From Paludibacteraceae bacterium (GTDB taxonomy: Bacteria > Bacteroidota > Bacteroidia > Bacteroidales > Paludibacteraceae), in contig JAFPXH010000006.1 in assembly GCA_017394705.1 (NCBI GenBank), positions 271,732 through 335,731 on the forward strand: a stretch of 64,000 bases of DNA, read 5' to 3'. Each line of letters opens with the position of its first letter. The first letter of the stretch is position 1. The position numbers and the translations under genes are program-made. Positions 1,820-63,804 of the stretch are shown in pieces. Under the pieces are notes generated by a model, which saw only the letters and a program-made list of their open reading frames with translations, did no database searches and was not told the origin of the DNA.

Positions 1820-2628
1820 TAGAGTTCAAATATCAGGTTTTCCTCTGCGAGGCAGGTATTCTCAAAGATGGGTTTTGCCTCTTCAAGGAAGAGATGATGA
1901 TTCTCTTCTCTCGCCGTATAATGTCCGAGGATCAGTTTTCCCACTTTCGCCAATTGCGCTATTTTTGCAGCCTCTGCAGCTGTAGAATGCTTTACCTCTT
2001 TGCTCCGTTCAGCCATTGATTGCAGGAATGTGGACTCATGATAAAGAGTTTCTACACCTTCGATAATCGGCACTATTTTCTCCGAGTACATCGTATCCGA
2101 ACAATACGCATAGCGCTTGCGGGTCAGACGTTCGAATGAGCCATCATCGTTTTTATGACGTCGCGTCTCATTGAAAAGGAATCCGCAAGTAGGCACACCA
2201 TGTTTGAGCGGGATAGTCTCTACGCTGACCGTGCGGTCCTCATAAATCACCTCATGCTTACGCGGGTTAATTGGATGGAAGATGATATCGAACAAACGGT
2301 CACTACAATGATAATTCAGCAGAGGACTAAGAAGTTTTTCTAAGTCCGGATGCGCATAAATATGCATTGGCTGCGTTCGTTTAAGCATTGTCAACGTAGT
2401 CAAAAGGCCGATTAATCCGAAACAATGGTCGCCATGTAAATGTGAGATAAAGATATTATAGAGCCGAGATGTATGAATCCCCAACTTCTGCATCGTCAAC
2501 TGTACACCCTCTCCGCAGTCCACCAGAAACGATTTATCCCCCAACTCCACTAACTGCCCGGAAGGGGACGTAGTGCGGGTCGGTTTAGCACTTCCACAAC
2601 CTAATATCGTAAGCTTAGCGTTTGACAT
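1819..2628 (-). CDS. rnz: Ribonuclease Z (tRNA 3' endonuclease)
   Basis: A 269-residue metallo-beta-lactamase-fold nuclease that trims tRNA 3' trailers. The zinc-binding motif HLHGDH is at 63-68, with further His and Asp ligands in a YCSDT stretch and in LILGHYTAR near the C terminus. It suits this genome, where most tRNAs do not encode CCA. The start codon lies inside a heptamer repeat array, so the first codons are repeat-derived. The stop overlaps the radA start. DUF4954 ends 10 nt upstream, consistent with one operon. Confidence 0.95.
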   Translation of the reverse strand: MSNAKLTILGCGSAKPTRTTSPSGQLVELGDKSFLVDCGEGVQLTMQKLGIHTSRLYNIFISHLHGDHCFGLIGLLTTLTMLKRTQPMHIYAHPDLEKLLSPLLNYHCSDRLFDIIFHPINPRKHEVIYEDRTVSVETIPLKHGVPTCGFLFNETRRHKNDDGSFERLTRKRYAYCSDTMYSEKIVPIIEGVETLYHESTFLQSMAERSKEVKHSTAAEAAKIAQLAKVGKLILGHYTAREENHHLFLEEAKPIFENTCLAEENLIFEL

Positions 2629-2647
2629 TTGTCATTTGTTATTTGAC
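2620..2647. repeat. Heptanucleotide tandem array overlapping rnz start
   Basis: Four degenerate 7-nt units (GTTTGAC, ATTTGTC, ATTTGTT, ATTTGAC) fill the DUF4954-rnz junction. On the minus strand the rnz ATG sits inside the array. It belongs to the dispersed heptamer family described in the findings. Confidence 0.8.
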
Positions 2648-4621
2648 CTGTGCCAATTTAGTTAGCATTTTCTCACCTAGAGCAGACTTGCGTTCAATAT
2701 GCTCAAGCACTGCTTTGACAAAAGAGTTGGACTCAAACGAACCACGCACTTCTTCAAAGTCTGCCTCTGCCTGCTCGCGGTCTCCATCCACGCCAAACCC
2801 GGTTTGGCTATTAAGATCGAATTCCTTGCGAGCATCATCGTACACCATCTTATCAAGCGAAACCACGGCCTCTTTCCATTGGCGGATCGTTTGGTATATT
2901 TGTTCCAGCGTCACTTGTTCTACACTGCAACCCCATACTTGCTCCAATTTATCCAACGCCCAAGTCCATTCGTAGGAGTAATAGTGTGCATGCATCTGCT
3001 CGAAACGTGTTTGGATATCCGCCAGACTCAACACTCCCTGCTCTACCGCGTCGAGCAGTTTGGTCACTTCGTCTTTAGGAGCTATCAACCCTGCCAAATC
3101 TACCCAATCTCCCAAACCTATTGCACTATCCGGACGCAAGGCAGCACGCACATCGGCCATCGTATGCAGTTCCTTTTCCTCCAAACGGCTGATGAGACTA
3201 TTACCCAAGAATTTCTGAATACCGATAGTATATAGTTCACGGCCATGACGAAGGGAAGAATTGCGGATCTTGCAGTTCTTATATCCATAGACCTCCGTGT
3301 TCTCTCCGCTCAGAGCCTGCAGTTCATTAAGTACTTCGCGTCCGCGCCACATCTTCTGCACCGTGTACGGACTAAGCAGGTTGAAGTTGATCAGGTCCAG
3401 TTTATGCGGGTCCTTGCGATTATCACGTTTGGGCCATTTCTGCGCGTCACGGATTGTACCCACCGTACGCAAGTTGGCGCCCGGAACAAGATAACTCTCC
3501 GAATTATTCTCTATCAAATAAGAGAAAGGCAGTTCAGATGTATCGGCATGATGGGTATGACGTCCCATAACGAGCGAGAAAGCTCCTATCTTCGATGGCC
3601 AGAGCAGATAACTATCGCTCGTCGTTTTAGCGCCACGCTCGGCTATACCCTGATGGATAGGACCGAGTTTATACATGTGATTCGACTGGTTAGATCCCGA
3701 CCCGGCATTAAGGAACGAGAACATACCTGCTATGAGCAATGTTGATTTATGATGGGTAACGGTATAAGGACCTGCAAAGATAGCACATGCCTCGCCGTGC
3801 ATTCCCTGACAGTTACTGAAGAAGAGACTCTCGCAAGCCGAATAATGCTTATCGAACTCACATCCTTGCCCCACGAAACACTTGTCCACCAAGGTTGAGT
3901 CGCCAATCTCTACACCCGAAGCGAGAATGAAGTCCACGCACTTGACACCACTTCCCAAACGCACAGGTGCTGCTTGATTGGAGTTGATAGTACCGTTTTT
4001 CAGGCGACTCACGCCATTCAGTTCGGCATAATCACCGATGCGCACATTCTTTATAGAACCGCAGTTGAGAATACGCACGTGGTCACCAATGTACCCCACC
4101 TCTGAAGCCTGCTCCTCAGCATACGCATCAATCTGTCGCTCCAACTCGTGAATCATCTTCGGCCGATGGCGATAGAGCGTCAGTATATACGCTAAACTGG
4201 CAGACAATTCATTAAAGATAGGGATTTCCCGTCCGCCACCCTCGTTCATCACCGGCACGCGCACACCGTTTCCAAAAGCAGTACGACCATCCACAAGGAT
4301 AGCGTTCACATTCTCGATGCATGTATTGGCGCCCACGTGATAATTGGCGATGTAGTTATGGATATTATAGAGATGCGCATCGTCGCCAATCTCGCAGTTA
4401 TGCAAGGTCACGTTGTATATTCCCGAATGAACCTGGAGTCCTCCGGGTAACTCAATCTCGCGCCGAAAAGCGCCCAGACGGTTGTGCCCTGAAAAGTGCG
4501 CCTCTCGTACATAGCGAGGTTCAAACGCGTCCGCTACTTCCACATCGGCCCAGTTTTTGGCTGTGCAGCCCTGTGCCTCAAGGGCGGCAATCTCTGCCGC
4601 CGTCAGTTTTCGATAAGCCAT
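2639..4621 (-). CDS. DUF4954 family protein (left-handed beta-helix)
   Basis: A 660-residue protein matching the Bacteroidota/spirochaete DUF4954 family. The central part (about 60-300) carries irregular hexapeptide-like repeats, such as IGDDAHLYNI and VRIGDYAEL, typical of the left-handed beta-helix found in acyl- and nucleotidyltransferases. The C-terminal about 200 residues look alpha-helical and charged. No nucleotidyltransferase signature is visible, so a sugar-nucleotide role would be a guess. It lies between dnaN (12 nt away) and rnz (10 nt) in one transcription unit, which implies co-expression but not a shared pathway. Confidence 0.85.
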   Translation of the reverse strand: MAYRKLTAAEIAALEAQGCTAKNWADVEVADAFEPRYVREAHFSGHNRLGAFRREIELPGGLQVHSGIYNVTLHNCEIGDDAHLYNIHNYIANYHVGANTCIENVNAILVDGRTAFGNGVRVPVMNEGGGREIPIFNELSASLAYILTLYRHRPKMIHELERQIDAYAEEQASEVGYIGDHVRILNCGSIKNVRIGDYAELNGVSRLKNGTINSNQAAPVRLGSGVKCVDFILASGVEIGDSTLVDKCFVGQGCEFDKHYSACESLFFSNCQGMHGEACAIFAGPYTVTHHKSTLLIAGMFSFLNAGSGSNQSNHMYKLGPIHQGIAERGAKTTSDSYLLWPSKIGAFSLVMGRHTHHADTSELPFSYLIENNSESYLVPGANLRTVGTIRDAQKWPKRDNRKDPHKLDLINFNLLSPYTVQKMWRGREVLNELQALSGENTEVYGYKNCKIRNSSLRHGRELYTIGIQKFLGNSLISRLEEKELHTMADVRAALRPDSAIGLGDWVDLAGLIAPKDEVTKLLDAVEQGVLSLADIQTRFEQMHAHYYSYEWTWALDKLEQVWGCSVEQVTLEQIYQTIRQWKEAVVSLDKMVYDDARKEFDLNSQTGFGVDGDREQAEADFEEVRGSFESNSFVKAVLEHIERKSALGEKMLTKLAQVK

Positions 4622-4633
4622 ACTACTCGGCTA

Positions 4634-5758
4634 TTAGTCATTCAAAAGCATCGGCATGAGGAGCATCAGAACATCCTCATTCTCTTCGTTCTCTGCCGGC
4701 AAGATCAAACCTGCGCGAGCCGGGTCAGCCAACTTCAACTGTACGTCAGCCGAAACGATGGAAGAGAGCAAGTCAATCAGGAACGGAGCCTTGAAACCGA
4801 TTGCCATCGGCGAGCCCTGATAATCGCAAGCGATTACCTCTTCTGCGCTTGTAGAGAAATCGATGTCTTGAGCCGAGATCTTGATGTTGTTTTCACTGAG
4901 AGCAAGTCGGAGTAATGCTGTTCCGTTGTTAGCGAAAACCGCCACGCGCTTGCAGGCATTGATGAAGGTTTGACGGTCCACCGTTACGATATTCTGGTTG
5001 CCCTGCGGGATAACTGCGTTGTAATTCGGGAAACGGCCCTCTATCTGCCGGCAAACGATAATCGTACTGCCGAACTCAAAGCGCGCATTCTTGGCACCGA
5101 AAATAACCTTTACTTCGCTCTCTTCTTTCGCCAATAGATTCTTCAGGAGACCGGCCGGTTTCTTCGGCAGAATGAAACTAGCCACCACACCGGGTTTAAC
5201 GCCATCGTTGGTATAACGAACCAAACGATGAGCATCGGTAGCTACCATCGTCACTTTGTCTTCAGCAATATCGAAGAAAATACCATTCATCACCGGACGA
5301 AGGTCATCGTCTGCAGTACAGAAGATTGTTTTCTCAATTGCGCTCTGGAGTACGTTGGCAGGAAGAGTCAATGCTTTGGCATCCGCCTCAGATGCCGGCA
5401 TTTCGGGATACTCGTTACCGTTAACGCCTACGAACGAATACGTACCATTCTGGCTCACCATACTAACTGCGAAATTATTCTCGTCAATGGTAAAAGCCAG
5501 CGGTTGCTCGCTGAACTCTTTAAGTGTCTCCAGCAATAACTTGGCAGCGGAAGCTACTTTTCCGCTACCCTCGACGCCATCAACCTCCACAGAGGTGCGA
5601 ATAGTTGTCTCACCATCCGAAGCCGTCAACTTCAGTTCGTTGCCCGAGAGGTCAAACAGCACGTCATCCAAGATAGGAAGGGCGTTCTTGTTGTTAATCA
5701 CGCGGCTTACAGCCTGTAATTGGGAAAAGAGTTTAGAACTCGAAACATTGAATTTCAT
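4634..5758 (-). CDS. dnaN: DNA polymerase III beta sliding clamp
   Basis: A 374-residue sliding clamp that tethers the replicative polymerase. The N terminus (MKFNVSSSKLFSQLQAVSRV) and three repeated clamp folds are typical, as is the C-terminal MLMPM segment near the partner-binding pocket. It is the first gene of the dnaN-DUF4954-rnz-radA cluster and is transcribed from a divergent promoter shared with murI. dnaA and recF are not adjacent, so this is not an obvious origin region. Confidence 0.97.
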   Translation of the reverse strand: MKFNVSSSKLFSQLQAVSRVINNKNALPILDDVLFDLSGNELKLTASDGETTIRTSVEVDGVEGSGKVASAAKLLLETLKEFSEQPLAFTIDENNFAVSMVSQNGTYSFVGVNGNEYPEMPASEADAKALTLPANVLQSAIEKTIFCTADDDLRPVMNGIFFDIAEDKVTMVATDAHRLVRYTNDGVKPGVVASFILPKKPAGLLKNLLAKEESEVKVIFGAKNARFEFGSTIIVCRQIEGRFPNYNAVIPQGNQNIVTVDRQTFINACKRVAVFANNGTALLRLALSENNIKISAQDIDFSTSAEEVIACDYQGSPMAIGFKAPFLIDLLSSIVSADVQLKLADPARAGLILPAENEENEDVLMLLMPMLLND

Positions 5759-5815
5759 ATACGTATATTTTAAATGATTTTTTTACAATTCTATTGTAAT
5801 CATACAATTTAGCGT

Positions 5816-5865
5816 GCAAAGATACACTTTTTTTTGCATACATGCAAATTTTTTTGTAATTTTGC
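5816..5865. promoter_or_regulatory. Overlapping divergent promoters for dnaN and murI
   Basis: The minus promoter has -7 TATCTTTGC (complement of 5816-5824) and the plus promoter has -7 TAATTTTGC (5857-5865). Both -33 TTTG boxes are supplied by one palindrome, TTTGCATACATGCAAA (5833-5848), each arm exactly 20 nt from its -7 TA. The layout implies that RNA polymerase at one promoter competes with the other. Confidence 0.8.
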
Positions 5866-5910
5866 GGCGTAAATCATAAATTTGCAGTTACAAATCTATC
5901 ATGTCATGCC

Positions 5911-6789
5911 ATGCGCATAGGTGTTTTTGACAGTGGATACGGCGGATTGACGATTCTCAATGCGATCCGCAAAGAGTTGCCTCAGTACGATTATCTGTAC
6001 TTAGGGGACAATGCGCGCGCACCCTATGGCACGCACTCTTTTGATGTCATTTATCGCTACACTTTGCAAGCGGTCAAATACCTCATCGAGCAGGATTGCA
6101 CACTCGTCATTTTGGCCTGTAATACCGCATCGGCGAAAGCCCTGCGGACCATCCAACAGAATGATATTCCTCCCTTAAGGGAGGGCTTGGGTAGGACGGT
6201 GAATGTCTTAGGCGTCATTCGTCCGACCGTGGAAGCCGTTCCCGGCATTACCAAAACCGGACATGTCGGTATTCTGGCTACACCTGCTACCGTTTCTTCC
6301 GAATCCTATGTCCTCGAATTGGAGAAAATAGCCCCCGAACTAACGATTGTGCAGCACGCTTGTCCGCTATGGGTGCCGCTTATTGAAGCCGGCGAACATA
6401 ATGAACCAGGCGCCAAATATTTCATCGGCAAATACCTGCGTGAGATTCTTGCCAAAGACCCGCAGATTGACACCCTCGTTCTGGGTTGCACCCACTATCC
6501 GCTGATGAAAGAGCGAATCGATAACTGGCTCGAATTCCGCCATGAATTGGATGAATCGGAATTCCCGCAACCGACGGACTCACCAAAGGTGACTACTATT
6601 GCGCAGGGCGAATTGGAGGCGAAGAGTTTGGCGGATTATCTGTCTCGTCATCCCGAGTATCGCGAGCAACTCTCCACCGGTGGTAGCTGCACCTATCTGA
6701 CCACAGAAAATGCGGAGCGCTTCTCGCAGTCCGCATCGATATTCTTGGATTCGCCCATACATGCAAAGCATGTAGGGCTTTCGGATTAG
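5911..6789 (+). CDS. murI: Glutamate racemase
   Basis: A 292-residue cytoplasmic enzyme making D-glutamate for peptidoglycan. The N-terminal FDSGYGGLT contains the conserved Asp-Ser. The two catalytic cysteines are C70 in LACNTAS and C193 in LGCTHYP. Between residues about 87 and 97 a Pro-Pro-Leu-Arg-Glu-Gly-Leu-Gly stretch is encoded by a palindrome inserted in frame, in the loop after the first active-site segment. Racemases usually have a shorter link there. The 3' end runs into an octamer/heptamer array shared with the sufB stop. Confidence 0.96.
   Translation: MRIGVFDSGYGGLTILNAIRKELPQYDYLYLGDNARAPYGTHSFDVIYRYTLQAVKYLIEQDCTLVILACNTASAKALRTIQQNDIPPLREGLGRTVNVLGVIRPTVEAVPGITKTGHVGILATPATVSSESYVLELEKIAPELTIVQHACPLWVPLIEAGEHNEPGAKYFIGKYLREILAKDPQIDTLVLGCTHYPLMKERIDNWLEFRHELDESEFPQPTDSPKVTTIAQGELEAKSLADYLSRHPEYREQLSTGGSCTYLTTENAERFSQSASIFLDSPIHAKHVGLSD
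6169..6184. repeat. Short palindrome inside murI
   Basis: A perfect 16-nt palindrome, CCTCCCTTAAGGGAGG, followed by a G-rich tail, is translated within murI as IPPLREGLG. Similar purine/pyrimidine-skewed palindromes occur in the RluD-like gene, the SGNH esterase signal peptide, the MBL hydrolase and before the last lipoprotein. Confidence 0.75.
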
Positions 6790-6829
6790 TGGGTTAGAGG
6801 ATTAGAGGGTTAGAGGTTAGCTATTAGCC
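6784..6829. repeat. Tandem array (8/7-nt units) between murI and sufB
   Basis: Units GGGTTAGA, GGATTAGA, GGGTTAGA, GGTTAGCT and ATTAGCC fill the convergent murI/sufB junction and supply both stop codons (TAG for murI, TAA for sufB). No hairpin terminator is visible here. Confidence 0.75.
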
Positions 6830-8263
6830 TATAGAACCCTCCAAGGACACCTGTAACAGTTTTTGTGCTTCGACGGCAAACTCCATCGGCAGTTTGTCCA
6901 TCACCTCTTTGGCATAGCCGTTAACGATAAGACCAACGGCATCTTCGGCGCCTATCCCTCGTTGGCGACAGTAGAAGAGTTGGTCTTCGTTAATTTTGGA
7001 GGTTGTGGCTTCGTGTTCAACGGTTGCCGTAGGATTAGAGATAATCATATCCGGGAAAGTATGCGCGCCACACTGATCGCCCAATAACAGACTATCGCAT
7101 TGGCTGTAGTTGCGTGCATTCTCGGCATGAATACCCATTTTGACCAGTCCGCGGTAGGCATTCTGACTATGGCCGGCAGATATACCTTTGGAAATAATGC
7201 GTGAGCGCGTGTTGCGTCCGATATGAATCATCTTCGTTCCGGTATCCGCCTGCTGGTAGTTGTTCGTTACGGCTACGGAGTAGAACTCCGCGGAAGAGTT
7301 GTCCCCTTTCAAGATACAAGACGGATATTTCCATGTGATAGCCGAACCGGTCTCTACTTGCGTCCAAGAGAGTCGTGCGTTCTCATGCGTGATACCTCGT
7401 TTGGTAACGAAATTATAGATACCGCCCTTGCCATTCTTATCGCCCGGATACCAGTTTTGGACGGTGGAGTACTTGACTTCCGCATCCTTGTGCACGATAA
7501 TCTCCACTATGGCTGCGTGCAGTTGATTCTCATCGCGCATCGGTGCGGTGCATCCTTCCAAATAAGACAGATATGCCCCTTCATCGGCGATGAGAAGCGT
7601 TCGCTCAAACTGACCCGTTTTACCGGCATTAATGCGGAAATAGGTACTCAATTCCATCGGGCAACGTACTCCTTTGGGCACATAGACAAACGAGCCATCA
7701 GAGAAAACAGCAGAGTTAAGCGCCGCATAGAAATTATCGGTAGGCGGAACGACTGAACCGAGGTATTTTTTCACCAATTCCGGATGTTCACGCACCGCTT
7801 CAGAGATGGAACAGAAGATGATACCTTTCTCGGCGAGCGTTTCACGGAACGTGGTTTTGACAGAAACGGAATCCATGACTGCATCGACTGCCATGTTTCC
7901 CGCCAAGGCTGCGCGCTCTTCCAAAGGAATACCGAGCTTGTCGAAAGTCTTCATGATCTCTTCGTCAATCTCGTTTTTCTGTCCTTGCTCTTTGCTCTTT
8001 GTCTTCGGAGCTGCAAAATACGAAATGGCTTGGAAGTCGATTTCGGGAATATCAAGATGCGCCCATGTCGGAACAGGCATCGACTGCCATTTTCGGAATG
8101 CTTTGAGACGAAACTCCAAGAGCCACTCCGGTTCTCCTTTTTTCGCAGAGATAAGGCGAACGATGTCTTCGTTCAGTCCAGCCGGTACAATATCGGTCTC
8201 CACATCGGTGGTAAAACCGTATTTGTACTCTTGCGAAGTAATATCTTGGATGATGTTATCCAA
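6824..8263 (-). CDS. sufB: Fe-S cluster assembly scaffold SufB
   Basis: A SufB scaffold of about 479 residues from a TTG start at 8263. The family N-terminal hallmark YKYGF and the block [20 protein letters not shown] follow within 50 residues, and the C-terminal beta-helix core is complete. The open frame continues upstream to 8386, but that part translates a tRNA-Cys gene and its terminator, so it is not real. No ATG lies between the tRNA terminator and the conserved domain, so TTG is the best start and is inferred. sufC and sufD are not adjacent, which is unusual; they must lie elsewhere. Confidence 0.93.
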
Positions 8264-8396: not shown

Positions 8397-8436
8397 GGAT
8401 CGCGTTAGCGCGATGCTTTCTTTTTCAAAAGCGGGT

Positions 8437-8469
8437 GCAAAAGTACTGCTTTTTTTTGAAATACACAAA
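8437..8469 (-). promoter_or_regulatory. Promoter of tRNA-Cys (and probably sufB)
   Basis: On the minus strand the -33 TTTGTG and -7 TACTTTTGC are 20 nt apart. The spacer ends in AAAAAAAAGCAG, the extended version shared with several stable RNA genes. No other good promoter lies between tRNA-Cys and sufB. Confidence 0.8.
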
Positions 8470-8484
8470 TTTTCAGTCATTTTT

Positions 8485-8517
8485 TTTGCAAATATGATAA
8501 AAAAAGAGTAACTTTGC
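8485..8517 (+). promoter_or_regulatory. Promoter of the MTAN-like/rlmI/exonuclease operon
   Basis: A -33 TTTGCA (8485-8490) and -7 TAACTTTGC (8509-8517), spaced 20 nt. It is back to back with the tRNA-Cys promoter and gives a leader of about 200 nt before the first gene. Confidence 0.8.
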
Positions 8518-8723
8518 ACACAAAATTAACTTCAAGCCCATCTATCGTATGTCATATAGCATAGGAGAGATAACGGTACGGATGGTGACAGAGGAAGCGT
8601 AAAATCTTAATAATCGTGTATATTTTGAGTGCCTTAAGAGTGCCTTAAAACCAGCTAATTACTCCGATAAGAGTCCGTTCAGTCTCGTAAAAAGCAAATC
8701 TTAAAAATAGTAAACTTTTTGGT
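8518..8723 (+). other. Long untranslated leader with 11-nt periodic repeat
   Basis: About 200 nt without a gene. It holds two direct GAGTGCCTTAA units (8627-8648) that run into degenerate 11-nt units to 8680. The last 28 nt (8653-8680) are the inverted copy of a sequence at 20676-20703. I did not recognise a known riboswitch fold. Confidence 0.6.
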
Positions 8724-9209
8724 ATGAAGAAATACATCTTAATTGCAGAAGAAGGCGAACGTCCTTTGATAGACAAAGTTAGTCAGGAATTTGGCGTTGA
8801 ATGGCCGGAAGCAGAAGTGGTTGTAACCGGTGTTGGCGCGATAAATATCATCCGCTCGCTGCAAGGCTTGGACCGCGAGGCTGAAGTGCTGAATATCGGC
8901 TATGCCGGAAGTGCGAATTTTGAACTTGGTAATTGGGTGGAAGTGACGGAAGTGCGCCTGAACCATCCAAACGTTACCTACGCGGAGCCGGAATTGAAAG
9001 TTGAAAGTTTAAAGTTGAAAGGAGTGAAGCGCGCGATTTGTTATTCGAATTGCGATTTTGTGTTAGCGTCGGACTACAAAGACTGCGTCTTTGATATGGA
9101 GTTGGCCTTTATCGCATCGCTGGGATTTGCCAAATTGTATAGTCTGAAATATGTGAGTGACAACCTAAGTTTGCATTCTTATCACGACCTAACACACGGA
9201 GTAGAATGA
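8724..9209 (+). CDS. Nucleoside phosphorylase / MTAN-like protein, short
   Basis: A 161-residue protein of the purine nucleoside phosphorylase superfamily. VTGVGAINI and IGYAGS match the substrate-binding strands, DMELAFIA the active-site Met-Glu helix, and LKYVSDN the catalytic Ser-Asp end. It is much shorter than true MTA/SAH nucleosidases (about 230 residues), so substrate and even activity are uncertain. Residues about 91-101 (ELKVESLKLKG) are encoded by an in-frame heptamer array, probably a tolerated insertion. The stop overlaps the rlmI start by 4 nt (ATGA). Confidence 0.75.
   Translation: MKKYILIAEEGERPLIDKVSQEFGVEWPEAEVVVTGVGAINIIRSLQGLDREAEVLNIGYAGSANFELGNWVEVTEVRLNHPNVTYAEPELKVESLKLKGVKRAICYSNCDFVLASDYKDCVFDMELAFIASLGFAKLYSLKYVSDNLSLHSYHDLTHGVE
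8991..9022. repeat. Heptamer array inside the MTAN-like gene
   Basis: Units AATTGAA, AGTTGAA, AGTTTAA and AGTTGAA sit within coding sequence and keep the frame open. Confidence 0.8.
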
Positions 9210-10429
9210 CCACCATTATTTTAAAGCCCCATAAAGAAGAATCGCTGAAGCGTTTTCACCCGTGGGTTTTCTCGGGTGCGATAGCTCGTGTCGTGTTAGA
9301 TGCGGCACACGAGGCGTCTGCTCCTCAAGAAGGTGAGTTGGTACGCGTCGAGAGCAGTAATGGGGATATTTTAGGTGTAGGGCATTGGCAAATAGGTTCG
9401 ATAGCCGTGCGGATATTAGAATTCGGCGTGGCAGACCTGCCTCAAGACTACTGGCATCAGCGTATCCGCGCGGCCTATCGCGTACGTCTGTCTCTCGGTC
9501 TGTTAAACTCCAACAATAACACTTTCCGACTCATTCACGGGGAAGGCGATTTTGTGCCGGGTCTGATAATTGACGTATATGCCGACACAGCGGTTATCCA
9601 AGCGCACTCCGTGGGTATTCATTACTGCCGCGAAGCAATAGCCGAAGCTGTGGTAGCTGAAGTTCCTCAAGTAAAAAATGTGTATTATAAAAGCGACGAC
9701 ACATTGCCATTCAAAGCGGATATATCCGGCATGAAAGTGGGGTATTTAGTGGAAAGCGGAAAGCCGAAAGTGGAAAGTGAAGAGTTCTGGTCAAAGGAAA
9801 ACGGGTTGGAGTTTCGGATTGATTGGTTGCGCGGGCAGAAAACCGGTTTCTTTATCGACCAGCGGGAGAATCGTGCGCTGGTAGAGCGTTATGCGTCGGG
9901 CAAAGAAGTGCTGAACATGTTCTGCTACACCGGCGGGTTCTCGTTGTACGCATTGCGTGGCGGAGCAAAACATGTCGATTCGGTAGATGTGAGTCAGAAA
10001 GCAATCGATTTGGTGAACGCCAACGTGGCACATAATTTTCCAAAGGCGACCAACCATACATCCGTATGCGCCGACGCGTTTGAGTATCTTAGTGCACAGA
10101 AAACGGCCGGTCGGACGTTTGACCTCATTATTCTCGACCCTCCGGCTTTCGCCAAACATCGCGATGCGGTAAAGAACGCATTGCGCGGGTATCAACGTAT
10201 TAACGCGAAGGCGATAGAAATGATTCGTCCGGGCGGTGTGCTCTTCACATTCTCTTGCTCGCAGGCCGTGGACAAAGAGGCATTCCGTCTGGCAGTCTTC
10301 AGTGCCGCCGCTTCTGTAGGAAGAAAAGTGCGGATCTTGCACCAACTGCATCAACCGCAAGACCATCCGATTAATATTTATCATCCCGAAGGAGAATACC
10401 TGAAGGGCTTAGTACTGTACATAGAATGA
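9206..10429 (+). CDS. rlmI: 23S rRNA (cytosine-C5) methyltransferase RlmI family
   Basis: A 407-residue protein with an N-terminal PUA-like domain (about 1-85) and a C-terminal Rossmann methyltransferase. The SAM-binding segment VLNMFCYTGGFSLYALRGGA lies at about 234-253, and the catalytic-site motif LILDPPAFAKHRDAV at about 309-323. It probably methylates a 23S rRNA cytosine; the exact position is inferred from the family. A heptamer array encodes an extra Lys/Glu/Ser-rich segment at about 182-193, between the linker and the MTase domain. It overlaps both neighbours by 4 nt (ATGA). Confidence 0.9.
   Translation: MTTIILKPHKEESLKRFHPWVFSGAIARVVLDAAHEASAPQEGELVRVESSNGDILGVGHWQIGSIAVRILEFGVADLPQDYWHQRIRAAYRVRLSLGLLNSNNNTFRLIHGEGDFVPGLIIDVYADTAVIQAHSVGIHYCREAIAEAVVAEVPQVKNVYYKSDDTLPFKADISGMKVGYLVESGKPKVESEEFWSKENGLEFRIDWLRGQKTGFFIDQRENRALVERYASGKEVLNMFCYTGGFSLYALRGGAKHVDSVDVSQKAIDLVNANVAHNFPKATNHTSVCADAFEYLSAQKTAGRTFDLIILDPPAFAKHRDAVKNALRGYQRINAKAIEMIRPGGVLFTFSCSQAVDKEAFRLAVFSAAASVGRKVRILHQLHQPQDHPINIYHPEGEYLKGLVLYIE
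9750..9783. repeat. Heptamer array inside rlmI
   Basis: Units GGAAAGC, GGAAAGC, CGAAAGT and GGAAAGT follow one another in frame within rlmI. Confidence 0.8.
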
Positions 10430-13685: not shown

Positions 13686-14149
13686 AAGTTATTCTTTGTC
13701 TTTTTCAATTGCTTGCATTTCTTGCACTCTCCGTACACGAACAATGTGAATTGCTGCAAGTTAAAATTCGAATATTTGCGTGCGCGGATAATGCGTTCAA
13801 TAGCTTTGTCATGAAAATATGAAACTCGTCCGCATTTCTCGCATATCATTTGCATCTTCACTTGGTTATCCGCCTCAACCTCGTATAATGTTTTGGTGCG
13901 CTGACCGCGCTGACGCTCAATTGCGTGCACAATGTGCGCACTGACGAACAAGCGCAACACATTATATATTGTTCCTATAGATATACGATCCTCCTCACAA
14001 GCCTGCGCCAATTCTTCCGTTGTGAAAGGTTGCGGTAAGAGGCATAATTTCTCCAATACCGTCTGACGGACATCCGAATGACGAAGCCCGGCCTGAGCCG
14101 AATAAGCTTTTAGACGCTCCGAGGTGATATCTAACAGCGATTTTTTCAC
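13682..14149 (-). CDS. Fur family transcriptional regulator
   Basis: A 155-residue Fur/PerR/Zur-type repressor. The winged helix spans about 20-85 (GTIYNVLRLF is the recognition helix), and the dimerisation domain has the two zinc-knuckle pairs CEKC and CKKC. The regulatory metal cannot be read from sequence; the two CxxC pairs only show the structural zinc site. It lies between a GNAT gene (1-nt stop/start overlap) and a zinc peptidase (4-nt overlap), which may be its targets. Confidence 0.9.
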   Translation of the reverse strand: MKKSLLDITSERLKAYSAQAGLRHSDVRQTVLEKLCLLPQPFTTEELAQACEEDRISIGTIYNVLRLFVSAHIVHAIERQRGQRTKTLYEVEADNQVKMQMICEKCGRVSYFHDKAIERIIRARKYSNFNLQQFTLFVYGECKKCKQLKKTKNNL

Positions 14150-24187: not shown

Positions 24188-24217
24188 GTACTTTTTTATA
24201 AAAAAGTGCAGAAAAAT

Positions 24218-24249: not shown

Positions 24250-24353
24250 ACGCTTTTTCGCCGCATACGCGCGAAGAACAATGGGAATACTTAGGACTAC
24301 CTAGGGGCTACCTAATTATTATTAACTATTCATTATTAACTATTAATTGATTT

Positions 24354-25444: not shown

Positions 25445-25451
25445 CGTAAAT

Positions 25452-26596: not shown

Positions 26597-27540
26597 TTAA
26601 ACGCAAAGCAGATACAGTTCTTAAAGTGAGCGAACCCGCTCCACTCATGGAATTCCTCATCGCTAAGATGGGAGGTATGGCGCGTTCGTCGGTGAAGCAA
26701 CTGCTTGGCCAACGACGCGTCAAAGTGGGCAACGCTATCCAGACGCGGCATGACTTTGCCCTCAAAGCGGGTGATGTCGTTACCGTCTCTTCTGGGCGCG
26801 GCAACAGCCAGCTGACCCATCCTAAGTTACGCATCGTCTATGAGGATGATGATCTCATTGTGGTCAATAAGCAACCGGGCCTGCTCACCGTAGCCGCCAC
26901 ACCGGGTTCGTCCGAGACAACCGCCTACTCCATCCTACGCGCGTATGTGAAAAAACAGAACGCGCGCGCGGGGATATATGTCGTCCATCGGCTTGACCGT
27001 GAGACATCGGGACTGCTCGTCTTCGCTCGTTCGGAGGAGCTACAGCATTATATGCGCCAGTACTGGCGGGAGTTAGTCACCGAGCGCACGTATATAGCTG
27101 TCGCCGAAGGCGTTCTCGAACCGCGAGAAGGCAAGATCACTACTTGGCTGACCGAAGACAAACGCAATGCGGTGGTTTATTCCTCTCCCGTGGACGATGG
27201 AGGTGACATCGCCATCACTAATTACAAAGTATTAAAAATCACAAATCATAAATCACAAATCACAAATACCCCTCCCCTTTTAGGGGGAGGCAGGGAAGGG
27301 GCTTATTCCCTCGTCGAATTGCATCTCGAGACCGGTCGTACGAACCAGATTCGTGTGCACTTGGCTTCCAAGGGCTGTCCGGTGGTAGGCGACCGTAAGT
27401 ATGGCCATGGTAATGAGACCTCGCCCATAGACAGGCTTTGCCTACATGCCAAAGTGCTGGCATTCATCCATCCTGTGACGGAAAAGACCGTGCGTTTCGA
27501 GAGTCCGGTTCCCAAAGAATTCAATAGACTTTTTCTGTAA
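26593..27540 (+). CDS. RluA/RluD-family pseudouridine synthase
   Basis: 315 residues: an N-terminal S4-like RNA-binding domain (about 15-75), then the catalytic domain with the HRLDRETSGLL motif (catalytic Asp) at about 137-147 and the C-terminal LETGRTNQIRVHL block. Modifies an rRNA or tRNA uridine; target not readable. About 25 residues at 215-238 (KITNHKSQITNTPPLLGGGREG) are encoded by a heptamer array plus palindrome inserted in frame just before the conserved LVELHLETGRT strand. Relatives lack this. It overlaps pnuC by 4 nt. Confidence 0.9.
   Translation: MIKRKADTVLKVSEPAPLMEFLIAKMGGMARSSVKQLLGQRRVKVGNAIQTRHDFALKAGDVVTVSSGRGNSQLTHPKLRIVYEDDDLIVVNKQPGLLTVAATPGSSETTAYSILRAYVKKQNARAGIYVVHRLDRETSGLLVFARSEELQHYMRQYWRELVTERTYIAVAEGVLEPREGKITTWLTEDKRNAVVYSSPVDDGGDIAITNYKVLKITNHKSQITNTPPLLGGGREGAYSLVELHLETGRTNQIRVHLASKGCPVVGDRKYGHGNETSPIDRLCLHAKVLAFIHPVTEKTVRFESPVPKEFNRLFL
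27234..27290. repeat. Heptamer array plus palindrome inside the RluD-like gene
   Basis: Units close to ACAAATC (five, 27234-27268) are followed directly by the palindrome CCTCCCCTTTTAGGGGGAGG (27271-27290). The whole insert stays in frame. Confidence 0.85.
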
Positions 27541-29316: not shown

Positions 29317-30714
29317 ATGAAAAGAATCTTCTTTGTTCTTATAAGTCTTCTGTTTCTCCCTTCCTTCCAGGGAGGGGACGAGGGGATGCTCCTCTTTGCC
29401 AAGCCCCGTGTACACACGATAGGAGACAGCACGATGTCCGAGTATAAACCTGCTGCAACGCCCAAACGCGGATGGGGAATGTACTTACAGGCTTTCTTCA
29501 ATGCCGATTCAGTAACGGTCAATAACCGCGGCAAGTCCGGCGCCAGCACTCGTACGTTCTACGAGACGGAGAATTTATGGCCGTCCGTCAAGAAACAGTT
29601 CCGGTCGGGCGACTACCTCATTATTCAGTTCGCCCACAATGACGAGAAATGCAAAGGAGAGGATGTGTACGCGGAGAACGCACGGCTCAAAGCAGAAGGC
29701 AAAGACACGTTAACCGACATGCGCGGCACGGAGCCGAATACAACATACAAGCAATATCTGTACCGGTTCATCAACGAAGCCCGTGAATACGGCGTGACAC
29801 CGATCCTGATGTCGCCTATTTGCCGCGCATATTTCAAAGACGGCAAGATTAACGACGAAGGAAGGCACAAACTCCCGGGTACCAAAGAGCTCAGTAGTCA
29901 AGAAAGCGCCAAAGTATTCTCTGACAAAGGAACTTACGACAAGGACTACGTCCGTTGTATGCGTGAGGTGGCAGCCAATATGTGGGTTCCTTTCCTCGAT
30001 ATGACCACTGCCAGCCAGGATTTGCTGGAACGGCAAGGGAAAGACTTCTGCATGGCGCATTATTTCAATTGCGGCGACAAGACGCACACGGGCGCCGAAG
30101 GAGGTATGGCTATCGCCACACTGGCCTATAACCTCATTGCGCAGGAACCGATGCTGCAGGAACTGCAGTCATGGCAGGCTGCACCGGACAAAGAGACCTT
30201 AGCCGCATATGCGCAAGCAGTCGAAGAGAAAGGAAAACAGGCCGCTTTTGAAGCCAAAGGCGAGCCGTTTGAAGTACAAAATCTAAAATGCAAACTTCAA
30301 AATTTAGAGCAAGTCAAAGACGGTTTTGTCCCTATCGGAGGTCTCTGGCCGGCAGGCGAGATAGACGAGGTAGCGAACCGCTATATCGAATACACCATCG
30401 CTGCGGAGAAGAAAAAAGGCTTGGTCATCGAGTCCATCACGTTGCCCGTTCGGGCGAAAGGCGGCGCAGGAATGAACATACACATCAACTACGGTTTCGG
30501 CGATGCTTTCAAAGACGTGACCACTATATACGAAAATACCGCCTTGCCCAAATGTAAGACGGTATCTATTCGGCTGACTCAACCTATTCTTGTTCCTGCG
30601 GGCGAGACGTTTCATCTGCGCATACTACCGTGGTATGACTCCAACGGACGTCCGCAGAAAGGCAAACGGCTCATCCTCGGTGAGTTGAAGGTCAGCGGAA
30701 AGCGATTGCAGTAA
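29317..30714 (+). CDS. Secreted SGNH hydrolase, rhamnogalacturonan acetylesterase-like (CE12)
   Basis: 465 residues. A signal peptide (hydrophobic FFVLISLLFL) contains or is followed by a palindrome-encoded FQGGDEGM insert. The SGNH domain (about 30-280) has block I GDSTMSEY (catalytic Ser), the block II Gly in GKSGAST, block III FAHND (Asn) and block V DKTHTGAEGG (Asp-His in the usual DxxH spacing, here DKTH). This matches pectin-deacetylating CE12 esterases. A C-terminal beta domain (about 335-465) may bind carbohydrate. The linker at about 320-332 is encoded by a heptamer array. Substrate is inferred. Confidence 0.85.
   Translation: MKRIFFVLISLLFLPSFQGGDEGMLLFAKPRVHTIGDSTMSEYKPAATPKRGWGMYLQAFFNADSVTVNNRGKSGASTRTFYETENLWPSVKKQFRSGDYLIIQFAHNDEKCKGEDVYAENARLKAEGKDTLTDMRGTEPNTTYKQYLYRFINEAREYGVTPILMSPICRAYFKDGKINDEGRHKLPGTKELSSQESAKVFSDKGTYDKDYVRCMREVAANMWVPFLDMTTASQDLLERQGKDFCMAHYFNCGDKTHTGAEGGMAIATLAYNLIAQEPMLQELQSWQAAPDKETLAAYAQAVEEKGKQAAFEAKGEPFEVQNLKCKLQNLEQVKDGFVPIGGLWPAGEIDEVANRYIEYTIAAEKKKGLVIESITLPVRAKGGAGMNIHINYGFGDAFKDVTTIYENTALPKCKTVSIRLTQPILVPAGETFHLRILPWYDSNGRPQKGKRLILGELKVSGKRLQ
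30274..30308. repeat. Heptamer array inside the esterase gene
   Basis: Units GTACAAA, ATCTAAA, ATGCAAA, CTTCAAA and ATTTAGA lie in the interdomain linker, in frame. Confidence 0.8.
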
Positions 30715-33286: not shown

Positions 33287-33310
33287 AAAAGTTTAAAATT
33301 AAACAATTAG

Positions 33311-33357
33311 CATTCAGCTTTCAGCCTGCAGCTTATTTCTTAGCCACTAGGGCACGA
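33311..33357. repeat. Heptamer array joined to a 25-nt dispersed repeat
   Basis: Units AGCATTC, AGCTTTC, AGCCTGC and AGCTTAT run directly into TTATTTCTTAGCCACTAGGG (33333-33357 in full), a 25-nt sequence that recurs three times at 63737-63804 next to another heptamer array. Confidence 0.85.
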
Positions 33358-34456: not shown

Positions 34457-34474
34457 TGTTTATGCATTTTTTCT

Positions 34475-35281
34475 TTATTTTAGAGCAAAAAGAGTGCGTG
34501 CATTGGCACTTGTGGCGTTTATTATGTCTTCTGCCGTGCAATCTGCCACTTGCGCTAAGCGTTCCGCCACATGCACCATCCATCGGCTCTCATTCCGTTC
34601 ACCGCGGTGCGGAACAGGGGACATATACGGGGCGTCTGTCTCCAAGAGGAGACGGCTGGTGAGTTGCCATTGGTCATTGGTAATTGGTAATTTTGACAAT
34701 ACCTCTGCCAACTTGCAGTTTTTGAAAGTTATCACGCCGCCTATGCCCAAGTAAAACCCCATGTCAAGAATCTGTTGTGCGGTTTCGCGGCTACCGTTGA
34801 AGCAATGGAACACCCCGCGCAAAGGATGCGAGTCAACACCCGTTGCCACTTCTTTCACAAGCCGCATAATATCTTCCGTCGCTTCACGATTATGCAGAAT
34901 AACCGGCAAGTTCAGTTCGCGTGCCAAAAGCAATTGTCTGCGCAGAACCTCCCGCTGCGCCTCTTTATAGGTGGTATCCCAATAATAATCCAAGCCTATC
35001 TCCCCAATAGCAACTAATTCATTCCGATGTGCACGGATAGTTTGTTCTATTTTCTCCAGATCTTGCTGCCAGTCGGCGTTGACATCCTCCGGGTGCAGTC
35101 CCAATGCCGGGAAACAATATCCTGGATGGCGGCGACACACCTCCAAGACCGTCTCAACTGACGCCACATTCACGCCCGGCACAATCATCGCCTCCACGCC
35201 TTCCGCTTTCTGCCGTGCGATTACTTCTTCGCGGTCGTCCGCAAACGCCGCCTCATCAATATGACAATGAGTATCAATCAT
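34475..35281 (-). CDS. tatD: TatD family metal-dependent DNase/hydrolase
   Basis: 268 residues. MIDTHCHID supplies the first metal ligands. Glu in GEIGLDYYWD, His in LPVILHNREA and FHCFNGS, and the late Asp in LLLETDAPYMSP complete the TatD site. Probably a 3'-5' exonuclease. A heptamer array encodes KLPITNDQWQLTSRL just before the conserved LLETDAP strand. The start abuts a heptamer array that ends in the queA stop. Confidence 0.93.
   Translation of the reverse strand: MIDTHCHIDEAAFADDREEVIARQKAEGVEAMIVPGVNVASVETVLEVCRRHPGYCFPALGLHPEDVNADWQQDLEKIEQTIRAHRNELVAIGEIGLDYYWDTTYKEAQREVLRRQLLLARELNLPVILHNREATEDIMRLVKEVATGVDSHPLRGVFHCFNGSRETAQQILDMGFYLGIGGVITFKNCKLAEVLSKLPITNDQWQLTSRLLLETDAPYMSPVPHRGERNESRWMVHVAERLAQVADCTAEDIINATSANARTLFALK
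34665..34694. repeat. Heptamer array inside tatD
   Basis: Units GCCATTG, GTCATTG, GTAATTG and GTAATTT, in frame. Confidence 0.8.
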
Positions 35282-35283: not shown

Positions 35284-35323
35284 GATTGGTGATTGGTGAT
35301 TGGTTATTGGTTATTGGTTATTT
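35284..35323. repeat. Heptamer array between queA and tatD
   Basis: Three GATTGGT, two TATTGGT and a partial unit: the cleanest array of the family. It contains the last codons and stop of queA. Confidence 0.9.
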
Positions 35324-40031: not shown

Positions 40032-40079
40032 CTTTAACAATTTAACAGTTTAACAGTTTAACAGTTTAACGGCTTAATG
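40032..40079. repeat. Octamer tandem array between marC and rpiB
   Basis: Units CTTTAACA, ATTTAACA, three GTTTAACA-like and GCTTAATG: the clearest 8-nt-period member of the repeat family. Confidence 0.85.
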
Positions 40080-43904: not shown

Positions 43905-43938
43905 AATTTGTCATTTGAAATTTGACATTTGAGATTTA
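43905..43938. repeat. Heptamer array between rplQ and aspS
   Basis: Units AATTTGT, CATTTGA, AATTTGA, CATTTGA and GATTTAC; the last contains the rplQ stop codon. Confidence 0.85.
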
Positions 43939-44436: not shown

Positions 44437-44464
44437 ATTTTAAATTTTAAATTTTACATTTTAC
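44437..44464. repeat. Heptamer array between rpoA and rplQ
   Basis: Units ATTTTAA, ATTTTAA, ATTTTAC and ATTTTAC; it includes the rpoA stop codon. Confidence 0.85.
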
Positions 44465-61235: not shown

Positions 61236-61261
61236 TGTTGTCTTTTCAATCTTTTTTGCAT

Positions 61262-61321
61262 CTTACAGCAGCTTGCTGCGGTCTTTCAGTGTTAACGGTC
61301 TTACAGCAGTTTACTGCGGTC
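61262..61321. repeat. Tandem hairpin units between rpsG and fusA
   Basis: Two units CTTACAG...CTGCGGT (61262-61283 and 61300-61321, hairpin cores GCAGC-TTGCTGC and GCAG-TTTA-CTGC) flank a degenerate CTTTCAGTGTTAACGGT. The same kind of unit is amplified before rpsG. Confidence 0.75.
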
Positions 61322-61328
61322 AGATTCT

Positions 61329-61956: not shown

Positions 61957-62035
61957 CTTACAGCAGCCTGCTGCGGTCTTACAATGTAATGGTCCTACAG
62001 CGCAGCGGTCTTACAGCGAAGCGGTCAAGCGCAGC
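61957..62035. repeat. Tandem hairpin units between rpsL and rpsG
   Basis: Four to five units of about 16-21 nt share the frame CTTACAG-stem-CGGT (cores GCAGC-CTGCTGC, GCGCAGC, GCGAAGC), ending at the rpsL stop. The rest of this 230-nt spacer (61806-61956) has no recognisable feature. Confidence 0.75.
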
Positions 62036-62774: not shown

Positions 62775-62799
62775 CCCGCAAATCAAAATCGATGCAACT

Positions 62800-63687
62800 A
62801 TGCGTAAATTCTTTTCTTTCTTTGCCATCGCAGCGGTAGTGCTGGGCATGGCGAGCTGTAACGGTAACGACCCCGAGCAACCGACGCCTGTGGGTGCTAT
62901 CAATGGCAAGTTCTCCGTGGCGCCGGGCAAACAGGTCTATTTCTCCCGCGGAAACCTTCAGTATAACGCTTTCCACGATAAATGGCGTTTCGCGGAAAAC
63001 CAGTGGGATTATGTGGGTAATGCTACAGATGGAACGGTTAAAATAGGTAATACGAAATGCAATAATGCCAATGTCAGCCCAAGCTACAACGGCTGGATTG
63101 ATTACTTTGGATGGGGTACAGGCATGAATCCTACGAATACAAGCAAGAACGATGCAGACTATCAAACGTTTACAGATTGGGGAAATAATCCCATCTCTAA
63201 TGGCGGTAATCAGGCTTATCTATGGCGTACGCTCACTAATGACGAATGGAACTATCTGCTCTTCACCCGAGTAGAGGCAAGCGACAAAATTGGTGCAGTC
63301 GAAGTAAATAACATTCCGGGTTATGTTCTTTTGCCGGACAATTGGCAGTTGCCAAACGGTTGTGAATTTACTCCCGGGATACTCAAAGCAGGATCGTTTG
63401 AAGCATGGAGCAAGATACCCTCCACGAATTTGTACAGTGGTGAGGTGTGGGATGCAATGGAAAGAGCGGGGGCAGTCTTTCTTCCTGTTGGTGGTTATCG
63501 CTGGCAAGGGAGTATCGAAGATGTTGGTATCATTGGTCTGTATTGGTCGTGTACATCTTACGACAACGACAAAACCTGCGCGTACAGTATGGGCTTCGCT
63601 GCCTCCCTATTCACTCTTGATAGAGACAGATATTACGACGGTAAGAGTTCAGGTTTAACCGTCCGCCTCGTACAAGATGTGAAATGA
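62800..63687 (+). CDS. FISUMP-like secreted lipoprotein
   Basis: 295 residues. Lipobox LGMASC (C about 20), a short Pro/Glu linker, then one domain starting FSVAPGKQVYFSRGNLQYN, with aromatic GWIDYFGWGTGMN, ending YWSCTSYDNDKTCAYSMGF and GLTVRLVQD. These match the Fibrobacter major paralogous/FISUMP-type C-type-lectin-like domains that are abundant in gut Bacteroidales. Probably a surface-exposed binding protein; ligand unknown. Confidence 0.82.
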   Translation: MRKFFSFFAIAAVVLGMASCNGNDPEQPTPVGAINGKFSVAPGKQVYFSRGNLQYNAFHDKWRFAENQWDYVGNATDGTVKIGNTKCNNANVSPSYNGWIDYFGWGTGMNPTNTSKNDADYQTFTDWGNNPISNGGNQAYLWRTLTNDEWNYLLFTRVEASDKIGAVEVNNIPGYVLLPDNWQLPNGCEFTPGILKAGSFEAWSKIPSTNLYSGEVWDAMERAGAVFLPVGGYRWQGSIEDVGIIGLYWSCTSYDNDKTCAYSMGFAASLFTLDRDRYYDGKSSGLTVRLVQDVK

Positions 63688-63713
63688 TGCAGTGTGCAGC
63701 AAAGCTGCAAGTG

Positions 63714-63804
63714 GTCATTTGTCATTGCCCATTTGCCATTTCTTAGCCACAAGGGCACGATTATTTCTTAGCCACAAGGGCACGATTATTTCTTAGCCAC
63801 AACG
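63714..63804. repeat. Heptamer array followed by three 25-nt repeats
   Basis: Heptamers GTCATTT, GTCATTG, CCCATTT and GCCATTT (63714-63741) run into TTTCTTAGCCACAAGGGCAC. Copies are 63737-63760, 63761-63785 and a partial 63786-63804. The same 25-mer is joined to heptamers at 33333-33357. Confidence 0.9.

What the first reader, a model, noticed from the sequence alone, without database searches (positions are those of the whole stretch)
2620..63741. Family of 7-nt-period tandem arrays scattered through genes and spacers
At least fifteen short arrays have a degenerate 7-nt period (two are partly or wholly 8-nt): 2620, 6784, 8991, 9750, 24315, 25452, 27234, 30274, 33311, 34665, 35284, 36799, 40032, 43905, 44437 and 63714. 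Unit sequences differ (GATTGGT, GAAAGTT, ACAAATC, ATTTTAA and others), so this is conservation of period, not of sequence. Several lie inside genes in frame; others supply start or stop codons (rnz, rpoA, rplQ, queA). It recalls the heptanucleotide STRR repeats of heterocystous cyanobacteria, but I know of no described equivalent for this lineage. An active tandem-generating process, perhaps strand slippage with later divergence, is implied.
Basis: partly seen in the sequence, partly recalled or inferred. Interest (0 to 1): 0.72.

Follow-up and report, generated by a model that had tools for sequence, protein, structure and literature searches.

The report
Seven-letter DNA repeats that swap spelling
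Short DNA stretches that repeat about every seven letters are scattered through this gut bacterium and its close cousins, where they often sit at the same spots in and between genes but are spelled differently from species to species, which suggests that small tracts of DNA are being created, copied around and overwritten.

Summary
In detail: Tandem Repeats Finder reports 15 of the 16 sites, not 30274. In 364 kb of this genome there are 39 lag-7 segments against 0.2 in shuffles; lags 8, 11 and 12 are raised, lags 4-6, 9, 10 and 13 empty. The host is an uncultured gut Bacteroidales. Close congeners have 7-nt arrays at the same density, distant ones a third; 255 kb from other families has none at that threshold. 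At orthologous sites congeners have no array, a similar one, or a 7-/8-nt array of another unit. At cleanly measured in-gene sites length changes keep the reading frame. Units form a restricted repertoire with partial genome dialects, and unrelated loci of one genome share multi-unit strings with unrelated flanks. Best reading: arrays born by slippage or insertion, spread by short-tract exchange, tolerated in spacers and protein loops; mechanism inferred. MutS is present; RVT_1 is absent from most congeners examined. Heptamer arrays are a known kind; new are the lineage, the 7/8/11 spectrum and in-frame insertion with unit turnover.

The parts
2621..2645 (.). 7-nt array (TTTGTCA) over the start codon of RNase Z (1819-2628, -)
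   Evidence: TRF; gene; congeners mostly without a scored array there, two with other units
6783..6820 (.). 8-nt array (GGATTAGA) over the murI stop and the convergent spacer murI (+) / sufB (-)
   Evidence: TRF; strict array; genes
8994..9021 (+). 7-nt array (TTGAAAG) inside unnamed 161-aa ORF 8724-9209 (no Pfam match at 1e-8)
   Evidence: of 8 congeners five have a 7-nt and one an 8-nt array there, all of other units; length change a multiple of 3 in 8 of 8
9748..9779 (+). 7-nt array (GGAAAGY) inside RlmI-like methyltransferase gene 9206-10429
   Evidence: length change a multiple of 3 in 10 of 10
24318..24348 (.). 7/14-nt array (ATTATTAACTATTA) between tRNA-Ala and the S6 gene
   Evidence: weak by the lag score
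25455..25480 (+). 7-nt array (AAATTTA) in the spacer after the L9 gene (25001-25444); five congeners share a TTAAAGT array
27236..27267 (+). 7-nt array (AAATCAC), part of a 48-nt in-frame insert with an adjacent CCCCTCCCC..GGGGGAGG palindrome, in RluA-family gene 26593-27540
30274..30310 (+). weak, perhaps decayed, A-rich stretch in a GDSL-like protein gene (29317-30714)
   Evidence: not detected; G091 counterpart is a 7-nt array
33309..33334 (-). 7-nt array (AGCTTTC on +) downstream of an ExbB/TolQ-like gene (33361-34179, -)
34669..34692 (-). 7-nt array (ATTGGTN on +) in tatD (34475-35281, -), a 24-nt in-frame insertion relative to the five congeners aligned
   Evidence: G131 has an insert of similar length without clear period
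35284..35322 (-). 7-nt array (GATTGGT on +) between queA and tatD; carries the queA stop codon
36800..36826 (-). weak 7-nt array (ATTGGAG on +) inside RlmKL-like gene 36539-37738; stronger orthologous arrays in G003, G004, G114
40033..40070 (-). 8-nt array (TTTAACAG on +) between MarC-like and RpiB-like genes
43905..43937 (-). 7-nt array (ATTTGNN on +) between the L17 gene and a class II tRNA synthetase gene; shares an 18-nt string with array 25448-25480
44437..44463 (-). 7-nt array (ATTTTAA on +) in the rpoA-rplQ spacer; relatives carry 7-, 8- or 9-nt arrays of other units or none scored
63716..63741 (.). 7-nt array (CATTTGC) after gene 62800-63687, followed by a 25-nt tandem element
   Evidence: weak by the lag score

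Best explanation
The arrays are short tandem repeats in constant turnover. New arrays with a step of about 7, 8 or 11 nt are born by strand slippage or insertion. They are then extended, copied and overwritten by exchange of short tracts between arrays at unrelated loci of the same genome (ectopic gene conversion, or capture of array DNA), so each genome drifts toward its own dialect of units. Survivors sit in spacers and in protein loops, where selection keeps the reading frame. Shown: the excess, the sharp periods, presence/absence and unit change at orthologous sites, frame conservation, the restricted repertoire, and ectopic sharing without flank homology. Inferred: slippage as origin, recombination as route, removal of most landings, no function as such. 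Not explained: why 7, 8 and 11.
For: Period spectrum far above shuffles. Of 144 site x genome regions (the window's own 14 included) 69 are periodic at a loose score, 49 with period 7. 7-nt arrays at the same site in different genomes have similar units in 30 of 80 pairs, i.e. differ in 50. One RluA loop in the 30 best of 121 genus genomes searched (own included): 13 empty (24 nt), 17 filled with several different inserts, all 30 lengths multiples of 3; the tree needs at least 13 label changes, and well-supported branches force at least 4 empty/filled changes. Length differences are multiples of 3 at in-gene sites 8994 (8 of 8), 9748 (10 of 10) and 36800 (8 of 8), against 28 of 68 at six spacer sites. 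256 similar unit pairs among 69 thinned arrays vs 89.5 +- 8.7 for shuffled units; within-genome similarity 0.154 vs 0.109, P=0.0044; without the densest genome G015 and the duplicated stretch L040, 0.146 vs 0.096, P=0.0018. Strings >=16 nt with a unit variant shared between loci of one genome: 0.0114 vs 0.0035, 0 of 2000 permutations; without G015 and L040, 8 of 1345 pairs, 0.0059 vs 0.0026, P=0.008. Flanks of 29 such pairs, 15-40 nt out, are 25-30% identical. MutS_V in 30 of 31 genomes. RVT_1 absent from 14 of 19 genus genomes, own among them.
Against: Plain slippage would not be expected to leave periods 5, 6, 9 and 10 empty; no cause for 7/8/11 is shown. The emptiness is not absolute: congeners have single arrays of period 4, 6, 9 or 10 and G131 and RUG14447 a 9-nt array at rpoA-rplQ. 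Inheritance is substantial: same-site pairs are similar in 30 of 80, well above 89 of 968 for unrelated pairs, and W and G131 share the identical RluA array. At the orthologous sites the same-genome excess is only suggestive (19 of 128 vs 89 of 968, Fisher P=0.057). 19 of the 29 shared-string pairs come from one genome, G015. Long strings are also shared between genomes. G015, the densest, does have an RVT_1 gene, as does G002. No machinery was identified, no strain-level data were available, and the assembly is 71% complete.
Confidence: 0.55

Rival explanations
1. In-situ slippage only: each array grows from its own local sequence, some sequences being favoured, and then decays.
For: Heptamers are reported as the most abundant long simple repeats in most genomes, with polymerase geometry proposed as the cause (Mrazek 2007 as described in PMC4679880 and PMC4692102, passages). 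Array lengths vary at orthologous sites. At the RlmKL-like site the array-less congener G002 has a single ATTGG that could serve as a seed.
Against: Multi-unit strings with a unit variant recur at unrelated loci of one genome more than expected. ATTGGTN units recur at separate sites (tatD, RlmKL-like gene, queA spacer); in tatD the aligned array-less congeners show no obvious seed by eye.
Confidence: 0.2
2. Discrete insertion of pre-formed arrays: a tiny mobile element family, like the small dispersed repeats of cyanobacteria or the Rickettsia palindromic elements (both recalled).
For: In-frame insertions in tatD and the RluA loop, with palindromes in the same loops; a 25-nt element lies beside some arrays.
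Against: No constant ends or target duplication seen by eye, no transposase or reverse transcriptase tied to them; unit sequences differ widely.
Confidence: 0.15
3. Selected function: binding arrays, RNA signals or terminators kept at fixed sites.
For: Arrays recur at the same sites (rpoA-rplQ spacer, ORF 8724-9209). 26 of 60 lie in codirectional spacers against 12% of random segments. In genes the sense strand is A-rich in 19 of 22, baseline 0.59, P=0.0085; in codirectional spacers the split is 17 to 8 with one tie.
Against: Units, period and presence change between congeners at the same site; 22 of 60 lie inside genes.
Confidence: 0.07
4. Phase variation (contingency loci): 7-nt arrays in genes switch reading frames.
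For: Unit length is not a multiple of three, and arrays lie inside genes.
Against: No out-of-frame state at the cleanly measured in-gene sites (RluA loop 30 of 30; 8994 8 of 8; 9748 10 of 10; 36800 8 of 8). The named genes among these are RNA-modification enzymes, not surface genes.
Confidence: 0.03

Closest known systems
Heptanucleotide repeats of heterocystous cyanobacteria (STRR, recalled), incl. Nostoc trnL P6b repeats
   Same: Repeat arrays of one class replaced by another class at one site (PMC4476775, abstract and passages); that these are heptanucleotides is recalled
   Different: Here many sites and many units, also inside protein genes in frame; 8- and 11-nt sister arrays; Bacteroidales
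Long simple sequence repeats with heptamer excess (Mrazek 2007, not held, known through PMC4692102 and PMC4679880)
   Same: Heptamer peak
   Different: Degenerate arrays, 7/8/11 spectrum, unit turnover at orthologous sites
GGGAATC / GGGGA(T/C)T repeats of Xanthomonas and Nostoc (PMC4692102, abstract and passages)
   Same: 7-nt arrays between the same genes in related species, with length and sequence variation
   Different: Those are one G-rich, quadruplex-prone unit type; here many units, commonly T/A-rich
TAACTGA direct repeats of Beggiatoaceae, Cyanobacteria and five Bacteroidetes (PMC4679880, passages)
   Same: Heptamer direct repeats, also in Bacteroidetes
   Different: One fixed heptamer, mostly just upstream of start codons; not among the 108 consensus units listed
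Small dispersed repeats in Nostoc heptamer arrays; Rickettsia palindromic elements (both recalled)
   Same: Small repeats beside heptamer arrays; in-frame insertions in genes
   Different: No constant element defines the arrays here

Membership tests
Heptanucleotide tandem repeats (general kind) | Tandem 7-nt period above chance | tested here: met
   39 vs 0.2 segments in 364 kb
Heptanucleotide tandem repeats (general kind) | Preference for spacers | tested here: met
   22 of 60 in genes vs 82% of random segments
Cyanobacterial STRR | Host is a heterocystous cyanobacterium | tested here: not met
   Bacteroidales relatives
Cyanobacterial STRR | The specific STRR unit sequences | not tested
   No cyanobacterial genome was compared
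Xanthomonas/Nostoc G-rich heptamers | G-rich quadruplex-prone unit | tested here: not met
   Common units are of TTTGNNA, TTGGNNA, TTTCNNC, TTAGCNG type; only a few are G-rich, e.g. TTACGGG (3 of 16 in G003)
TAACTGA repeats | Unit TAACTGA | tested here: not met
   Absent, by eye, from the 108 consensus units listed
Phase-variable SSR | Out-of-frame states in genes | tested here: not met
   RluA loop 30 of 30 in frame; 8994, 9748, 36800 likewise
Small mobile insertion element | Constant ends or target duplication | tested here: inconclusive
   None seen by eye; congeners too diverged for exact junctions
RT-driven repeats | A reverse transcriptase gene (RVT_1) | tested here: not met
   In 5 of 19 genus genomes, none in own (71% complete); none found in G003 and G006, which carry many arrays

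The most novel reading that the evidence does not exclude
A dedicated array-propagating process, with a built-in step of 7-8 or 11 nt, copies periodic DNA between unrelated loci with no need for flanking homology, and so acts as a generator of new in-frame peptide inserts in housekeeping proteins across a whole genus.
Probability: 0.15. Interest if true: 0.8.

Novelty: new variant of a known kind. Interest (0 to 1): 0.55.

Why it matters
Heptamer arrays have been noted in scattered bacteria for decades (recalled) without an accepted mechanism. This genus offers over a hundred species-level genomes with labile arrays at orthologous sites, empty sites included, so birth, copying and loss of arrays can be measured and the question 'why seven?' becomes testable. 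It also shows how repeats that are not multiples of three can seed in-frame protein inserts.

Tried and rejected
Mismatch-repair loss as cause: MutS_V domain found in 30 of 31 genomes, the miss being a 54% complete one. Reverse transcriptase as cause: though the densest genome G015 does have one. Phase variation: disfavoured by frame conservation. A special ATTNGTN grammar for this genus: rejected, since the backward-read control pattern is at least as common in the phylum (45 genomes by my eye count of the table, against 35 of 395). Arrays as part of a longer element: flanks of 29 matching pairs unrelated on average, although one G015 pair runs on into a second array. A 25-nt element as constant companion of arrays: only 2 of 9 own copies and 3 of 9 congener copies had an array scored within 40 nt. 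GGGGAGG palindromes as a genus mark: 4 in 364 kb against 3 in 255 kb of order relatives by a strict pattern.

Rows left out or odd. Frame count: site 27236 by flank BLAST was not used (one of 11 values, +25, is no multiple of 3; the direct loop measure of that genome gives +27); site 34669 was not used (several regions ran outside the gene; one of 12 values, +86, is no multiple of 3); site 30274 (0, 0, +12, 0, 0) and spacers 2621, 6783 and 24318 were not used either. Shared strings: the L039/L040 pairs were dropped because contigs C1 and C2 look duplicated there, and L040 was dropped whole. In one search no shuffled control was run for the loose score. In the tree one row (L271) was labelled palindrome by a crude rule. 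Gene calls for the location test come from a simple codon-usage caller of my own, not a standard program. Samples for distant congeners, order relatives and named records lie in good part around rpoA.
Full report
What was checked. TRF at score 30 finds a 7- or 8-nt array at 15 of the 16 positions named; 30274 is not found. Exact lag-7 runs of at least 9 matches number 8 in the window against 0.4 in 20 shuffles. Over 364 kb of the genome (the window and 15 stretches; 30% of the assembly) there are 39 lag-7 segments against 0.2 in shuffles, 10 at lag 8, 12 at lag 11, 5 at lag 12, and none at 4, 5, 6, 9, 10 and 13. Longer periods, chiefly 14-16, are present too: 3, 6 and 7 arrays. The first base of contigs C2, C5 and C9, 3 of the 9 contig starts read, lies in a 7-nt array of the same unit type, AGTGAAA.

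Host. The window lies in a 1.2 Mb, 71% complete assembly. The closest named loci by RpoA are uncultured Bacteroidales RUG372 and RUG14447, then Paludibacteraceae and Bacteroidales assemblies, several from goat, horse and cattle gut by their titles. Congeners are many: 121 genus genomes including its own were searched, drawn from a larger group.

Distribution. 7-nt arrays per 100 kb: own 10.4, close congeners 10.0, distant congeners 3.0, order relatives 0 in 255 kb, other named Bacteroidota loci around rpoA 1.7 in 1.24 Mb. Several congener stretches of 20 kb have none. By the looser count of exact lag-7 runs of 10 or more, the order relatives have 2 in 175 kb, no more than at several other lags. 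G015 reaches 30 per 100 kb. Samples around rpoA are rich in ribosomal-protein genes, which may lower their figure. 11-nt arrays number 12, 8 and 8 in own, close and distant congeners, and 0 in the order and named samples. Congeners show single arrays of periods that are empty in own: 4, 6 and 10 in G015, 9 in G003 and G002, 10 in G006. The exact pattern ATTNGTN x4 + ATT is in 35 of 395 genomes of the phylum, 26 of 171 genera, and its backward control is at least as common, so heptamer arrays as such are phylum-wide.

Sites compared across species. Aligning window 33-37.8 kb with five congeners shows a 24-nt in-frame insertion in tatD that these five lack, and an array in the RlmKL-like gene in three of the six genomes. 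G131 has an insert of similar length at the tatD place without clear period, and G003 and G114 carry ATTGGT arrays elsewhere in the region. Over 14 sites and up to 14 genomes, 144 regions (the window's own included) were cut out by flank matches; 69 are periodic at a loose score, 49 with period 7, 11 with 8, 4 with 9, 3 with 10 and one each with 11 and 12. In the rpoA-rplQ spacer the window has ATTTTAA, G001 AATGTTT, G004 an 8-nt unit, G002 AATTTAA, and G131 and RUG14447 a 9-nt unit. Same-site pairs of 7-nt arrays have similar units (at most one mismatch, any rotation or strand) in 30 of 80 cases; same genome, different site, 19 of 128; neither, 89 of 968 (Fisher against the last class: 1e-10 and 0.057). 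So inheritance is clear, turnover is common (50 of 80), and at these sites the dialect is only suggestive.

The RluA loop. In 30 loci (the best 30 of 121 genomes, own included) the loop between two conserved anchors is 24 nt in 13 and longer in 17. The inserts are AAATCAC, CTCAACT, GAAGGGC, TGACCAA or AATCAGC heptamers, G-rich palindromes, or other repeats; a further congener, G001, has an 11-nt array there. All 30 lengths are multiples of 3. The tree of the rest of the gene needs at least 13 label changes; well-supported branches force at least 4 changes between empty and filled, and the closely related pair G115 (filled) and G042 (empty) differs. Against a solved relative (11wx_A) the array-coded residues fall in an alignment gap, as do those of TatD against 2gzx_A; the RlmI-like array does not make a long gap.

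Frame. Length differences at 8994, 9748 and 36800 are multiples of three in 8 of 8, 10 of 10 and 8 of 8 comparisons; at six spacer sites 28 of 68 are (values; rows left out are told under Tried and rejected). Selection thus seems to filter arrays in genes; phase variation is not seen.

Repertoire and dialect. Among 108 arrays of period 7 in five genomes, similar unit pairs are 607 against 115 +- 12 for flank 7-mers. After thinning to 69 arrays at least 3 kb apart, 256 against 89.5 +- 8.7 for units shuffled within themselves; within-genome similarity 0.154 against 0.109 permuted, P=0.0044. Without G015 and the duplicated stretch L040, 117 pairs among 50 arrays against 49.8 +- 6.6, and 0.146 against 0.096, P=0.0018. 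Among 190 arrays of nine genomes, strings of 16 nt or more with at least one unit variant are shared between loci of one genome at 0.0114 against 0.0035 under permutation of locus labels, 0 of 2000. G015 supplies 19 of the 29 such pairs; without it and L040 the rate is 0.0059 (8 of 1345) against 0.0026, P=0.008. The bases 15-40 nt outside such strings are unrelated, 25-30% identical. Between genomes 14 strings of 16 nt or more with two variants are shared as well, some plainly at orthologous sites. This points to copying of array tracts themselves, within genomes above all.

Place. Of 60 7-nt arrays in own and close congeners, 22 lie in genes (random 82%), 26 in codirectional spacers (random 12%), 5 convergent (2%), 2 divergent (2%), 5 at stretch ends (3%). 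In genes the sense strand is A-rich in 19 of 22, baseline 0.59, P=0.0085; in codirectional spacers 17 to 8 with one tie.

Mechanism. Mismatch repair is present by its MutS domain; loops of 7 nt are beyond what it corrects in E. coli (recalled). RVT_1 is absent from 14 of 19 genus genomes, own included, but present in G015 and G002. I favour slippage or insertion for birth plus ectopic short-tract exchange for spread, at 0.55. Why the steps are 7, 8 and 11 is unexplained; 3 x 7 and 2 x 11 are both close to two helical turns, which is only a remark.

Literature. In the listings I saw (searches; one search listed 12 of 4,682) no paper described such arrays in Bacteroidales beyond TAACTGA in five Bacteroidetes (PMC4679880). 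The library holds open-licence papers only; Mrazek 2007 and the Nostoc small-repeat paper were not held. Of PMC4692102, PMC4679880 and PMC4476775 I saw passages with parts of the abstract, not the whole text.

Noticed in passing
63738-63802, 33340-33357; L043:14873, L036:5885 and others: A dispersed 25-nt element around TTAGCCACAAGGGCACGA, in 2.6 perfect tandem copies at 63738. 18 copies (up to 3 mismatches) in about 1.37 Mb of genus loci, some overlapping, and 0 in 255 kb of order relatives; by eye some copies can be read as NRALVAK near gene starts.
   Followed up: partly
61261-61321, 61991-62026; L041:9954-10041, L037:19012-19069: A 16-nt tandem family CGGTCTTACAGCGAAG; its 11-mer CGGTYYTACAG occurs 21 times in 364 kb of own genome and 0 times in 255 kb of order relatives.
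   Followed up: partly
L034:1321-1368, L040:19212-19257, L035:10496-10538 and others: 11-nt arrays (GGGGTGATTAC, GACCGAGAGAT and others): of 20, 14 in codirectional spacers, 1 in a gene, 1 divergent, 4 at stretch ends; seen only in this genus among the samples.
   Followed up: partly
8415-8520, 34413-34481, 24200-24260: Stretches near tRNA genes match many places in each congener; by eye the one at 34413 holds a Bacteroidota-type promoter (TTTG.. TAnnTTTG, recalled).
   Followed up: no
L241:4601-4723, L281 about 13930-14000: In G015 some heptamer arrays sit in facing (inverted) pairs, TTAGCYG followed by AAAGCCAATAGCC-like units, which could form long hairpins, perhaps terminators (by eye).
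   Followed up: no
27268-27300; RlmI-like gene of G015; RluA loop of G114, G115, G067: G-rich palindromes (CCCCTCCCC..GGGGAGG) are inserted in the same protein loops as the arrays.
   Followed up: partly
L039 about 4320-7956 and L040 about 131-3767: Contigs C1 and C2 of the assembly appear to share an inverted duplicated segment, possibly an assembly artefact (two array pairs with matching spacing).
   Followed up: no
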